This document shows, piece after piece, positions 9,738-15,845 of a stretch of DNA of 64,000 nt. The notes below the pieces were generated by a model, which searched no databases, had not been told where the DNA came from, and saw nothing but the letters and a program-made list of their open reading frames with translations. This DNA is from Pseudorhodoferax aquiterrae (lineage in GTDB: Bacteria; Pseudomonadota; Gammaproteobacteria; Burkholderiales; Burkholderiaceae_C). Position 1 is the stretch's first letter, and each line of letters begins with the position of its first letter. Location: contig NZ_BMYK01000025.1 in the NCBI RefSeq assembly GCF_014652235.1, positions 32,509 to 96,508 of the forward strand, read 5' to 3'. Both the position numbers and the translations under genes were made by a program.

Positions 9738-11276
9738 TCAGCCCTGGGCGGCCACGCGCTCGGCCTTGCTGTGCAGCTTGTTCAGCGCCGACAGGTAGGC
9801 CTTGGCCGAGGCCACCACGATGTCCGGGTCGGCCCCCACGCCGTTGACCACGCGGCCACTGTTCTGCAGCCGCACCGTGACCTCACCCTGGCTCTCGGTC
9901 GAGCCGCTGATCGCGTTGACCGAGTACAGCACCATCTCGGCGCCGCTCTTCACGTGCGACTCGATGGCCTTGAGGGAGGCATCGACCGGGCCGTTGCCGT
10001 CGGAGCTGCCGCGCACCTCCTTGCCCTGGGCTGTGAACACGACCTCGGCCTGCGGCCGCTCGCCGGTTTCGCTGTGCTGCTTGAGCGACACGAAGACGTA
10101 TTGCTCCTGCTCGTGCGCCACGCTCTCCTCGCTGACCAGGGCCAGGATGTCCTCGTCGAAGATCTCGCTCTTGCGGTCGGCCAGGTCCTTGAAGCGCGCG
10201 AAGGCGGCGTTGATGTCGGCTTCGCTTTCCATCTGCACGCCCAGGTCCTGCAGGCGTTGCTTGAAGGCGTTGCGGCCCGACAGCTTGCCCAGCACGATCT
10301 TGTTGGCGCTCCAGCCCACGTCTTCGGCGCGCATGATTTCGTAGGTGTCGCGCGCCTTGAGCACACCGTCCTGGTGGATGCCCGAAGCATGGGCGAAGGC
10401 GTTGGCGCCGACCACGGCCTTGTTGGGCTGCACCACGAAGCCCGTGGTCTGGCTGACCATGCGGCTGGCCGGCACGATGTGCTCGGTGGCGATGTTGACG
10501 TCCAGGCCGAAGTAGTCGCGGCGCGTCTTCACGGCCATCACGATCTCTTCGAGCGAGCAGTTGCCGGCGCGCTCGCCCAGGCCGTTGATCGTGCACTCGA
10601 CCTGGCGCGCGCCGCCGATCTTCACGCCAGCCAGCGAGTTGGCAACCGCCATGCCCAGGTCGTTGTGGCAGTGCACGGACCAGATGGCCTTGTCGCTGTT
10701 GGGAATGCGCTCGCGCAGGTTCTTGATGAAATTGCCGTAGAGCTCGGGAATCGCGTAGCCCACGGTGTCGGGCACGTTGATCGTGGTCGCGCCCTCCTTG
10801 ATGACCTCCTCGATCACGCGGCACAGGAAGTCGGGCTCGCTGCGGTAGCCGTCCTCGGGGCTGAACTCGATGTCGCCGACCAGGTTGCGCGCGAAACGCA
10901 CCGACTGGCGCGCCTGCTCGAACACCTGGTCGGGCGTCATGCGCAGCTTCTTTTCCATGTGCAGCGGCGAGGTCGCGATGAACACATGGATGCGCGCGCG
11001 GGCCGCGTCCTTGAGCGCCTCGGCCGAGCGCGCGATGTCGCGGTCGTTGGCGCGCGAGAGCGAGCAGATGGTCGACTCGCGCACCGTGCGCGCGATCGCC
11101 TGCACGCACTCGAAGTCCCCGTTGGAACTGGCCGCGAAACCGGCCTCGATCACGTCGACCTTGAGCCGCTCGAGCTGGCGCGCAATGCGCAGTTTCTCGT
11201 CGCGCGTCATCGAGGCGCCCGGCGATTGCTCGCCGTCGCGCAAGGTGGTGTCGAAAATGATCAGTTGCTCGCTCAT
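9738..11276 (-). CDS. leuA: 2-isopropylmalate synthase, LeuA type 1 family
   Basis: The 512-residue enzyme condenses acetyl-CoA with 2-ketoisovalerate in the first committed step of leucine synthesis. The start [20 protein letters not shown] is the HMGL/LeuA signature of the short (type 1) family, and [17 protein letters not shown] is the second signature with the metal-binding HxH. A C-terminal LeuA regulatory (allosteric) domain spans about residues 370-510. It lies 29 bases after another, longer isopropylmalate synthase of a different family. Relatives of type 1 include citramalate synthases, so a role in isoleucine precursor synthesis cannot be excluded. It is probably transcribed with the upstream leuA gene under the leucine leader. 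Confidence 0.93.
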
Positions 11277-11305: not shown

Positions 11306-13018
11306 TCAGCGCGCCGTTGCGGCTTCGGGCTCCGCGGCCACATTGTCCGCGCCGCGCGTGCCACGCTGCAGTCCGGACAAGATGGCCTTGAGCGAGGCCG
11401 ACACGATGTTCGCATCGATGCCCACGCCGAACAGGGTGCGGCCATCGTCCACGCGCAGTTCGAGGTAGGCCACGGCCTTGGCGTTGGCGCCGGCACCGAT
11501 GGCGTGCTCGTGGTAGTCCATCACGCGCACGCTGCGGCCCGTGGCCTGCTGCAAGCCGTCGACGAAGGCGTCGATCGGGCCGGTGCCGCGGCCCTGGACC
11601 CGCACCGCTTTGCCGCCGTAGACCAGGTCGGCCGAGAGCTCGACCTCGGTCGCGCCGTTGGCACCGCGCTGCTCGTGGAGACGATGCTGGGGTGCGGCCA
11701 CGTCGTGCAGGCCGTACTCCTTCTCGAACAGCGTCCAGAGGTCGTGCGCCGTGAGCTCCTTGCCCTCGGCGTCCATGACGCCCTGCACCACCTGGCTGAA
11801 CTCGATCTGCAGGCGGCGCGGCAACTCCAGGCCGAACTCGCTCTCGAGCAGGTAGGAGATGCCGCCCTTGCCCGACTGGCTGTTCACGCGGATCACGGCC
11901 TCGTAGGTGCGGCCGAGGTCCTTGGGGTCGATCGGCAGGTAGGGCACGTTCCAGACGTCGCCTTCCTTGCGTGCGGAGAAGACCTTCTTGATCGCGTCCT
12001 GGTGCGAGCCCGAGAACGAGGTGTAGACCAGGTCACCCACATAGGGATGGCGCGGGTGCACGGGCAGCTGGTTGCAGTGCTCGACCACGCGGCGGATCTC
12101 ATCGATTTCCGAGAAGTCCAGGCCCGGCGACACGCCTTGCGTGTAGAGGTTCAGCGCGACGTTGACCACGTCGAGGTTGCCGGTGCGCTCGCCATTGCCG
12201 AACAGGCAGCCTTCCAGGCGGTCGGCACCGGCCATCACGGCGAATTCGGCGGCCGCCGTGCCGGTGCCGCGGTCGTTGTGCGGGTGCACGGACAGCACGA
12301 TGGCATCGCGGCGCGCGAGGTTGCGGTGCATCCACTCGATCATGTCCGCGAAGATGTTGGGCGTGGAGTGCTCCACGGTGGACGGCAGGTTGATGATGCA
12401 CTTGCGCTCGGGCGTGGGCTGCCAGACTTCCGTCACGGCATCGACGACGCGCTTGGAGAACGCGAGCTCGGTGCCGGAGAACATCTCGGGCGAGTACTGG
12501 AAGGTCCACTGCGTTTCGGGCTGGCGCGCCGCCAGTTCCTGGAACAAGCGGGCCTGCGACGTGGCGAGCTCAACGATGCCGTCCTCGTCCGTGCCCAGCA
12601 CCACGCGGCGCATGATGGGTGCGCAGGCGTTGTACAGGTGAACGATGGCGCGCTTGGCGCCTTTCAGTGATTCGAAGGTGCGCTCGATGAGGTGCTCGCG
12701 CGCCTGGGTCAGCACCTGGATCGTGACGTCCTCGGGGATCAGGTCTTCCTCGATGAGCTTGCGCACGAAGTCGAACTCGGTCTGCGAGGCCGAGGGGAAG
12801 CCGACCTCGATCTCCTTGAAGCCGATCTTCACGAGCGCCTGGAACATCTGCAGCTTGCGCGCACCGTCCATGGGCTCGATCAGCGCCTGGTTGCCATCGC
12901 GCAGGTCGGTGGACAGCCAGATCGGCGCCTGGGTGATGACGGCATCGGGCCAGGTGCGGTCCGTCAGACGCACCGGTTGAAAGGCGGCGTACTTGCTGGC
13001 GGGGTTCTTCAACATCAT
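11306..13018 (-). CDS. leuA: 2-isopropylmalate synthase, LeuA type 2 (long) family
   Basis: The 570-residue protein is the long-form isopropylmalate synthase, as in actinobacteria and many proteobacteria. It shows [17 protein letters not shown] with catalytic Arg-Asp, [21 protein letters not shown], and [24 protein letters not shown] as the second signature. The C-terminal allosteric domain follows from about residue 430. It begins MM, with GAGGA at correct spacing before the first ATG. The gene sits downstream of a leucine-rich leader peptide and an attenuator hairpin, the clearest evidence that leucine supply controls it. Having two unlike LeuA enzymes in a row suggests different feedback sensitivity or a division between leucine and another alpha-keto acid chain extension; which one does what is not decidable here. 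Confidence 0.94.
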
Positions 13019-13057
13019 GCGGATCCTCGAGAGTGGTCAAAAGGCACCAGCAAACCC

Positions 13058-13098
13058 AAAAAGAAAAACGGCCCGATGCTGGTGCAAACGGGCCGTTT
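13058..13098 (-). terminator. leu attenuator terminator hairpin
   Basis: On the minus strand AAACGGCCCG (13098-13089) pairs perfectly with CGGGCCGTTT (13075-13066) around a 13-base loop, followed by TTCTTTTT. It starts 20 bases after the stop of the leader peptide and ends 40 bases before leuA. A competing pair, ACGGGC (13135-13130) with GCCCGT (13093-13088), could act as antiterminator. The loop GCACCAGCA is also complementary to TGCTGGTGC just downstream (13052-13044). Confidence 0.85.
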
Positions 13099-13118
13099 CG
13101 ACAAAAGGTGCGCGCGCG

Positions 13119-13172
13119 CTACCGTCTCCGCCCGTGGGGGATGATTAGTAGGGCTAGCGCGAGCTTTTGCAT
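13119..13172 (-). CDS. leuL: Leucine operon leader peptide
   Basis: A 17-codon reading frame encodes MQKLALALLIIPHGRRR and stops at TAG. It has four leucines in six positions, three of them CTA, a codon that is rare in such G+C-rich genes, followed by two isoleucines. It stands immediately before a terminator hairpin and the two leuA genes, the arrangement of ribosome-mediated attenuation: with scarce charged leucyl-tRNA the ribosome should stall on the CTA codons and favour antitermination. There is no Shine-Dalgarno site; a TAGAGT hexamer ends seven bases before the ATG, so the leader may be translated from a leaderless transcript. The assignment comes directly from the sequence; the regulatory behaviour is inferred from well-known leu, trp and ilv leaders. 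Confidence 0.82.
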   Translation of the reverse strand: MQKLALALLIIPHGRRR

Positions 13173-13179
13173 GGCGCGC

Positions 13180-13188
13180 ACTCTAGCA
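13180..13188 (-). promoter_or_regulatory. Extended -10 promoter for leuL-leuA-leuA
   Basis: The minus strand reads TGC-TAGAGT, an extended -10 form, ending seven bases before the leuL ATG. It lies just after the end of pssA. No good -35 box is visible, which extended -10 promoters tolerate. Confidence 0.45.
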
Positions 13189-13220
13189 CAGATGCGCGCG
13201 GCGCTGCGCGAGCGGCTGTC

Positions 13221-14036
13221 TCATTTGTGCAGGCCGCGCTCGTCGGGCTCGTCGGTCGAGGTGCTGATCACACTGGTCGGCCGGCCCTTGGCCTTGCGCC
13301 AGGCGTAAACGGCATAGCCGCTGAGCCCGTACAGCACGAACAGGCCGAACATCACGATGGGCGGGTGGATGTTGACGATGGCGATGCCCAGCGCGATCAG
13401 CACGATCACGACGAAGGGCACGCTCTTTTTCATCTGCACGTCCTTGAAGCTGTAGAACGGCACATTGGTCACCATGGTCAGGCCCGCATACAGCGCGAGC
13501 ACGAACATGATCCAGGTCACGTCGGCGCGCGGGATCTCAAGTTCGGTCATGAGCCAGATGAAGCCTGTGACGAGGGCCGCCGCTGCCGGCGACGGCAGGC
13601 CCTGGAACCAGCGCTTGTCGACCACGCCGGTGTTGACGTTGAAGCGCGCCAGGCGCAGCGCGGCGCAGGCACAGTAGACGAAGGCCGCGATCCAGCCCCA
13701 GCGCCCGGCCTCGCGCAGCGTCCATTCGTAGGCGATCAGGGCCGGTGCGGCGCCGAAGGACACCATGTCGGACAGCGAGTCCATCTGCTCGCCAAAGGCG
13801 CTTTGGGTGTTGGTCATGCGCGCCACGCGGCCGTCCAGGCTGTCCAGCACCATGGCGCAGAACACGCCGACCGCTGCCAGGTCGAAGCGATTGTTCATGG
13901 CCATCACGACGGCATAGAAACCACCGAACAGGGCCGCCAGCGTGAACAGGTTCGGCAGGACGTAGATGCCCTTGCGCCGCTTGCGCGGCATGGGCTCGTC
14001 CTGAACCACCAGCGCGGATTCATTGCCATCATGCAT
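13221..14036 (-). CDS. pssA: CDP-diacylglycerol--serine O-phosphatidyltransferase
   Basis: The 271-residue integral membrane enzyme makes phosphatidylserine from CDP-diacylglycerol and serine, the first step to phosphatidylethanolamine. The CDP-alcohol phosphatidyltransferase motif is exact: DGRVARMTNTQSAFGEQMDS then LSD, i.e. DG-x2-AR-x8-G-x3-D-x3-D. About eight hydrophobic segments follow each other, first around VLPNLFTLAALFGGFYAVVM. ATG 14036 (MHDGNES) is preferred; a GTG at 14063 would add nine residues and overlap the ilvC terminator region. Its place between ilvC and leuA is a known Burkholderiales arrangement with no obvious metabolic reason. Confidence 0.93.
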   Translation of the reverse strand: MHDGNESALVVQDEPMPRKRRKGIYVLPNLFTLAALFGGFYAVVMAMNNRFDLAAVGVFCAMVLDSLDGRVARMTNTQSAFGEQMDSLSDMVSFGAAPALIAYEWTLREAGRWGWIAAFVYCACAALRLARFNVNTGVVDKRWFQGLPSPAAAALVTGFIWLMTELEIPRADVTWIMFVLALYAGLTMVTNVPFYSFKDVQMKKSVPFVVIVLIALGIAIVNIHPPIVMFGLFVLYGLSGYAVYAWRKAKGRPTSVISTSTDEPDERGLHK

Positions 14037-15723: not shown

Positions 15724-15753
15724 GGATGCAGATTCCTCTTTTCGCCGCCCTCC

Positions 15754-15775
15754 CCCGCGCACGGTAATGCGCGGG
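15754..15775. other. Stem-loop in the ilvB-ilvH gap
   Basis: CCCGCGCA and TGCGCGGG form a perfect 8-bp stem with a six-base loop. There is no T-tract, so it is more likely an RNA processing or stability element than a terminator. Its role is unknown. Confidence 0.45.
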
Positions 15776-15845
15776 CTCGGCGGGCAATAGATTCGTCGTT
15801 TGAAAAAGTGGTCGCGCCTGCGCAGCAGGCCGACTTATCGCCTGG

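What the first reader, a model, noticed from the sequence alone, without database searches (positions are those of the whole stretch)
13044..13185. Leucine leader peptide and attenuator controlling two leuA genes
A 17-codon frame (MQKLALALLIIPHGRRR) with three rare CTA leucine codons is followed by a perfect 10-bp GC-rich terminator stem with T-tract, then leuA. ACGGGC in the leader can pair with GCCCGT of the terminator arm, giving an antiterminator. This is the classic logic of leu/trp attenuation, known in enterobacteria, but such small leaders are usually not annotated in beta-proteobacteria.
Basis: partly seen in the sequence, partly recalled or inferred. Interest (0 to 1): 0.75.

Follow-up and report, generated by a model that had tools for sequence, protein, structure and literature searches.

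The report
Leucine-sensing switch before leuA
A tiny leucine-rich reading frame and an RNA hairpin in front of the leucine-synthesis gene leuA most likely let the cell measure leucine by how fast a ribosome moves; the switch is conserved in a large bacterial family and has two unusual features worth testing.

Summary
A 17-codon frame with four Leu codons (three CTA), a 10-bp terminator stem with T-tract, and an ACGGGC/GCCCGT antiterminator precede two tandem leuA genes. A leader of this kind stands before leuA in the window and in 74 of 80 fetched loci (2 unusable, 4 with another leader). An RNA model finds the element in 176 of 200 genomes of the same family. CTA makes up 182 of 326 leader Leu codons, 2 of 273 in nine window genes. 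No Rfam family matches. It is best read as a classic ribosome-mediated leucine attenuator. The kind is known; the variant seems new, but an unread 2010 survey may overlap. All evidence is computational: no start-site or leucine-response data.

The parts
13180..13190 (-). Extended -10 promoter element TGTGCTAGAGT, ending 7 nt before the leader ATG; predicted start of transcription at 13173/13172
   Evidence: T, A and T of the hexamer invariant in the 75-sequence alignment; TAnnnT ends 5-10 nt before the ATG in 74 of 75
13119..13172 (-). Leader peptide frame (leuL), MQKLALALLIIPHGRRR, Leu codons CTC CTA CTA CTA
13130..13135 (-). Antiterminator 5' arm ACGGGC, inside the last codons of the leader frame
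13088..13093 (-). Antiterminator 3' arm GCCCGT, overlapping the terminator 5' arm
13089..13098 (-). Terminator 5' arm AAACGGCCCG
   Evidence: core GGCCCG/CGGGCC invariant in 75 of 75
13066..13075 (-). Terminator 3' arm CGGGCCGTTT
13058..13068 (-). T-tract TTTTTCTTTTT (overlaps the last three bases of the 3' arm)
13077..13085 (-). Helix P 5' arm GCACCAGCA, in the terminator loop
13044..13052 (-). Helix P 3' arm TGCTGGTGC, just after the T-tract; present only in read-through RNA
   Evidence: covariation score 0.221 against 0.105 in shuffles, 0 of 500
11306..13018 (-). leuA, 570 aa, 2-isopropylmalate synthase (TIGR00970, yeast-like type, above cut-off)
9738..11276 (-). second leuA, 512 aa, 2-isopropylmalate synthase (TIGR00973, bacterial type, above cut-off), 29 nt after the first
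   Evidence: a 512-type leuA follows in 68 of 80 loci

Best explanation
A ribosome-mediated leucine attenuator of the leuA-leuA operon. RNA polymerase starts at or next to the ATG of the leader frame. With leucine plentiful, the ribosome runs through the Leu codons to the stop and covers the antiterminator arm ACGGGC, so the terminator forms and transcription stops in the T-tract. When charged tRNA-Leu (mainly the one reading CUA) is short, the ribosome stalls on the Leu run, the upstream pairing is broken, ACGGGC pairs with the terminator 5' arm before the 3' arm is made, and polymerase reads into leuA. Without translation, the first half of the leader pairs with the segment after the stop and tends to hide ACGGGC, so termination is the default. 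In read-through RNA the loop of the would-be terminator can pair with the sequence after the T-tract (helix P); I think this keeps the read-through RNA structured and out of the terminator fold, but this step is the least certain. Shown here: conservation, codon bias, alternative foldings in silico, covariation of P. Inferred: transcription start, stalling, leucine response, function of P.
For: 75 aligned loci, 74 with two or more CTA; CTA 182/326 against 2/273 in nine window genes; controls 0 of 75 and 1 of 75. Terminator core invariant in 75 of 75; antiterminator 96.9% of cells paired. With the RNA cut at the end of the terminator 5' arm, the antiterminator forms in 130 of 132 when the part before it is taken as covered, and in 29 of 132 when the whole leader is free; in the finished leader the terminator forms in 131 of 132. 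Leader/after-stop pairing beats shuffles in 63 of 134, reversed control 9 of 134. The antiterminator arm lies 16, 13 or 12 nt before the frame's end in 128 of 134. Element in 176 of 200 genomes, 126 of 141 genera of the family. In all 80 fetched hits the gene after it is leuA: 512-type in 47, 570-type in 33.
Against: No expression data. At equilibrium the window's read-through RNA folds with the terminator, not with the antiterminator or P, even from the antiterminator arm on, so the switch must be kinetic. The antiterminator is too conserved for strong covariation. 14 of 146 sequences lack a plain CGGG arm. In 86 of 132 the last Leu codon is only 8-9 nt from the arm, so a ribosome stalled there would partly cover it; stalling on earlier Leu codons must do the work. 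The leader/after-stop pairing is significant in under half (63 of 134). Of 24 family genomes without a model hit, 17 were checked: 8 have the 512-type leuA, 7 of these were read, 3 lack the element and 4 have diverged leaders. Leader ATGs of the 75 were chosen by hand from ranked candidates.
Confidence: 0.92

Rival explanations
1. A plain intrinsic terminator ending the pssA transcript, with a chance small frame in front.
For: pssA lies upstream in the same direction, and the stem looks like a strong terminator.
Against: The CTA-biased frame recurs in the 75 aligned loci against 0 and 1 of 75 in controls. A -10 box sits at the frame's start, and the antiterminator arm keeps its place relative to the stop codon.
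Confidence: 0.03
2. Helix P is an H-type pseudoknot formed on top of the terminator stem in leaked or read-through RNA, acting on RNA stability or on leuA translation rather than as an alternative to the terminator.
For: P leaves the outer terminator pairs free, and a 16-30 nt spacer between its arms gives room for both. The MFE of the window read-through RNA keeps the terminator stem (that program cannot model pseudoknots).
Against: P uses the innermost terminator bases and the short inner stem of its loop. In the window the leuA Shine-Dalgarno is not in P. P is mostly missing when leuA follows the terminator within 40 nt (present in 1 of 8).
Confidence: 0.3
3. The terminated leader RNA acts in trans through its exposed loop, as rnTrpL does in Sinorhizobium, with the leuA 5' region or other mRNAs as target.
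For: The loop is complementary to a site in the leuA 5' region that covaries with it. An attenuator RNA acting in trans is known (PMC7298713, passages).
Against: The cis pairing should outcompete trans pairing. The 10-nt consensus complement TTGCTGGTGC occurs once in the window, at the cis site. No genome-wide target search was done.
Confidence: 0.08
4. Helix P arms are a DNA inverted repeat bound by a regulator.
For: They form an inverted repeat.
Against: The spacing varies from 16 to 30 nt, and the arms change together between clades.
Confidence: 0.03

Closest known systems
leu operon attenuator of Salmonella/E. coli (leuL)
   Same: Leader frame with a Leu run and CUA as control codon (Salmonella: three CUA codons; PMC1183508, passages). 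Intrinsic terminator and competing antiterminator before leuA (recalled).
   Different: No Rfam match at gathering for this site in the window or for 20 loci, one of them the window's own copy. Here the leader is apparently leaderless and has helix P. E. coli/Salmonella leader anatomy is recalled, not compared by a call.
trpL attenuator of Sinorhizobium meliloti
   Same: Transcript starts with the ATG of the leader frame (PMC7298713, passages).
   Different: Tryptophan, not leucine; alphaproteobacteria; no helix P that I know of.
LEU element before leuA in Actinobacteria
   Same: Leucine-run leader and a pseudoknot-type pairing before leuA (PMC1262725, passages).
   Different: There the Leu codons pair with the leuA Shine-Dalgarno, and the passages that I saw describe no terminator for it; here a terminator is central and helix P links its loop to the sequence after the T-tract.
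Leucine-rich attenuator peptide of branched-chain amino acid synthesis in Staphylococcus aureus
   Same: Leucine-rich attenuator peptide controlling branched-chain genes (PMC5794164, title and start of abstract in search listings).
   Different: Not compared in sequence; distant phylum.

Membership tests
Ribosome-mediated amino-acid attenuator | Leader frame rich in codons of the regulated amino acid | tested here: met
   75 of 75 loci with 3 or more Leu; 74 of 75 with 2 or more CTA
Ribosome-mediated amino-acid attenuator | Intrinsic terminator between leader and first structural gene | tested here: met
   stem plus T-tract; termination itself not measured
Ribosome-mediated amino-acid attenuator | Mutually exclusive antiterminator within reach of a stalled ribosome | tested here: met
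   In silico only: 130 of 132 with the 5' part covered, 29 of 132 without, RNA cut before the terminator 3' arm
Ribosome-mediated amino-acid attenuator | Default termination without translation (1:2 pairing) | tested here: inconclusive
   63 of 134 beat shuffles, reversed control 9 of 134
Ribosome-mediated amino-acid attenuator | Read-through changes with the amino acid | not testable with these tools
   No expression data
Rfam leucine operon leader | Match to the covariance model at gathering score | tested here: not met
   No such match in 12500-13600 at E up to 10, in 20 loci or in the whole-window scan
Leaderless mRNA | -10 box 6-8 nt before the ATG, no room for a Shine-Dalgarno | tested here: met
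   By alignment columns 6-8 nt in 55 of 75, 9-10 nt in 20 of 75; window 7 nt
Leaderless mRNA | Mapped transcription start at the ATG | not testable with these tools
   No start-site data at hand for this group
Actinobacterial LEU element | Leu codons pair with the leuA Shine-Dalgarno | tested here: not met
   Window only, MFE of the full leader: Leu codons pair within the leader and with the segment after the stop

The most novel reading that the evidence does not exclude
Leucine attenuation in Burkholderiales is built on leaderless leader mRNAs as a rule, across several families with unrelated leaders and hairpins, so that the ribosome loads on the very 5' end of the nascent RNA in step with polymerase. 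In the window's family it carries a second, read-through-only switch (helix P) that joins the terminator loop to the leuA 5' region and adds a post-termination layer of control.
Probability: 0.3. Interest if true: 0.7.

Novelty: new variant of a known kind. Interest (0 to 1): 0.48.

Why it matters
Attenuation depends on a ribosome and a polymerase starting the leader in step. A leader that begins at its own AUG makes that timing problem directly testable in a large bacterial family. A conserved helix that can exist only after the terminator has been passed has no role in the textbook model. In practice the element also gives an annotation handle (leader peptide, RNA model) where no Rfam family matched.

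Tried and rejected
Rfam: the sub-threshold hit at the site, Thr_leader (19 bits against a cut-off of 55), was rejected as a shared terminator shape. A trans function of the peptide was considered because of the often Arg-rich end, but the end varies (GRRR, GQRK, PRVR, GREE and others). A Leu-rich leader before ilvI in the window was looked for among its short frames and not seen. A rank test of helix P against other genomes' downstream sequences was weak (46 of 150 below 0.05), which I put down to related loops sharing related targets; it was followed by shuffles of each sequence's own target. RNAalifold on the full alignment returned only the terminator.

Rows dropped: L051 and L073 (no usable leuA start or upstream) and L078-L081 (Nevskiales, different leader) before the 75-locus counts. 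Leader ATGs of those 75 were picked by hand from the ranked candidates, choosing among nested ATGs; those of the 80 later loci were picked by script on Leu density alone. 53 of 75 sequences, the window included, went into the model, so matches of close relatives are partly by construction. Of 155 leaders, 150 had a GCCCG..CGGGC stem and 146 the stricter GGCCCG..CGGGCC stem, 132 of these with a CGGG arm. The 80 fetched hits were chosen towards the divergent end, mostly and a few. Of 24 family genomes without a hit (20 listed), 17 were searched, for the 512-type leuA only. The 15 other-family leaders were picked by eye from 26 other-family loci; for at least L138 the promoter was in view when I chose the start.

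Literature: ten searches showed no description of this element in their listings. The library holds open-licence papers only. A 2010 comparative survey of attenuation (Lopatovskaya and others) was seen only in a reference list and not read; it may already list betaproteobacterial leuA leaders.

Full report
Observation. On the minus strand, between pssA (14033-13221, TIGR00473 above cut-off) and two tandem 2-isopropylmalate synthase genes (13018-11306 and 11276-9738), lies a 17-codon frame, 13172-13119, with Leu codons CTC CTA CTA CTA, then a 10-bp terminator stem with an 11-base T-tract. The closest named loci are Pseudorhodoferax (LeuA 95-96% identical), NCBI family Comamonadaceae.

Conservation. 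Of 80 leuA loci found by similarity, two had no usable start and four Nevskiales loci have another leader. The remaining 74 plus the window carry a Leu-rich leader of 15-21 codons and the GGCCCG..CGGGCC stem; most are labelled Burkholderiales, a few metagenome bins bear other labels. CTA is 182 of 326 Leu codons there and 2 of 273 in nine window genes. Controls on the reverse strand and on shuffles give 0 and 1 of 75. The RNA model, built from 53 of these sequences, finds the element in 176 of 200 genomes (126 of 141 genera) of the window's family. In the order at large it finds 30 of 300 at E 0.01 or better: 8 of 9 in the family with the own genome counted, 3 strong hits (E about 1e-15 or lower) in one other family, the rest weak and not inspected. 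Of 17 family members without a hit that were checked, 8 have the 512-type leuA; of the 7 read, 4 show diverged leaders and 3 have lost the region. The other 9 were not searched for the 570-type leuA.

Gene context. In 68 of 80 loci the 570-type leuA is followed by the 512-type one, and in 75 of 80 pssA lies upstream. Among 80 further hits the gene directly after the element is the 512-type in 47 and the 570-type in 33, and one genome has one copy before each (L214, L215). The element therefore stays with leucine synthesis while the enzyme type behind it changes.

Switch. The terminator core is invariant in 75 of 75; the antiterminator is paired in 96.9% of cells with few changes. Its 5' arm CGGG lies at -16 (74), -13 (5) or -12 (49) from the frame's end among 134 sequences, so in one clade it is read (A)C-GGG and in another CGG-G; that is RNA constraint. 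Folding RNA that ends with the terminator 5' arm shows the antiterminator in 130 of 132 when the part before it is taken as covered and in 29 of 132 when it is free; the terminator forms in 131 of 132 finished leaders. Against this, the full read-through RNA of the window folds at equilibrium with the terminator and without antiterminator or helix P, so the choice must be kinetic, as in other attenuators (recalled). Pairing of the leader's first half with the segment after the stop beats shuffles in 63 of 134, reversed control 9 of 134.

Leaderless start. T, A and T of a -10 hexamer are invariant in the alignment, preceded by GTG at 90% or more per base. By alignment columns the hexamer ends 6-8 nt before the ATG in 55 of 75 and 9-10 nt in 20 of 75. 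With hand-chosen ATGs a TAnnnT ends 5-10 nt before the ATG in 74 of 75; with script-chosen ATGs in 61 of 80 further loci. The consensus promoter scan found none at this site in the window, which has an extended -10 but no recognised -35. Outside the family, 15 Leu leaders of quite different sequence were examined: the best-scoring -10 lies 6-9 nt before the ATG in 11 of 15, against a mean of 1.0 and a maximum of 5 in 500 shuffles; in 3 more a tied candidate lies there, in L130 none. These 15 and some of their starts were picked by eye. A start at the ATG, or at most a few bases before, follows from usual promoter spacing (recalled); it is not mapped. [quoted passage not shown] PMC4603805, passages).

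Helix P. The terminator loop is complementary to the bases after the T-tract. On the alignment, 84.1% of cells pair, 59 cells are changed on both sides (shuffles 20.1), and the covariation score is 0.221 (shuffles 0.105, 0 of 500; best slid version 0.082). Related sequences inflate such scores. Over 150 sequences the pairing beats shuffles of its own target at 0.05 in 115 and at 0.01 in 96: 69 of the first 75 and 46 of the 75 more divergent ones at 0.05; 48 of 79 distinct loops. A reversed-arm control gives 26 of 150, more than the 7.5 expected, so composition explains part. A stricter cross-genome rank test was weak, 46 of 150. P is mostly absent when leuA starts within 40 nt of the terminator (1 of 8), so it is not essential to the element. 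Since its 3' arm lies past the expected release point, it can form only in read-through RNA and cannot decide termination of the same transcript. My reading is that it stabilises the read-through fold; a pseudoknot on the terminator stem is nearly as likely.

Verdict. Known kind (ribosome-mediated leucine attenuation), without an Rfam match here, in a variant with an apparently leaderless leader and an extra covarying helix. Ten literature searches (listed under tried and rejected) showed no description, with the limit that only open-licence papers are held.

Noticed in passing
L078-L081, about 180-235 nt before leuA: Four Nevskiales leuA loci carry another Leu leader that ends in ...LP-stop, with the stop codon inside a CUGCC/GGCAG hairpin and a second GC-rich hairpin but no T-tract; possibly a different, arrest-like or Rho-linked attenuator.
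   Followed up: no
L127-L152 (other Burkholderiales families): A second class of leucine leaders (ends such as GLLLRLAR, SLLLTIGYRA) stands before leuA; in 11 of 15 examined the best -10 lies 6-9 nt before the ATG, and several show no clear T-tract.
   Followed up: partly
window 15730-15797 (-): Rfam ilvH RNA (RF02993, 97 bits) lies just before the acetolactate synthase small-subunit gene in the same gene cluster.
   Followed up: no
L214 and L215: One genome has two copies of the element, one before each leuA type.
   Followed up: partly
L226 and L229: Relatives in which the terminator stem itself is changed (GGCCCG..TGGGCC, GGCTCG..CGAGCC) while a loop with a partner after the T-tract is still recognisable by eye.
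   Followed up: no
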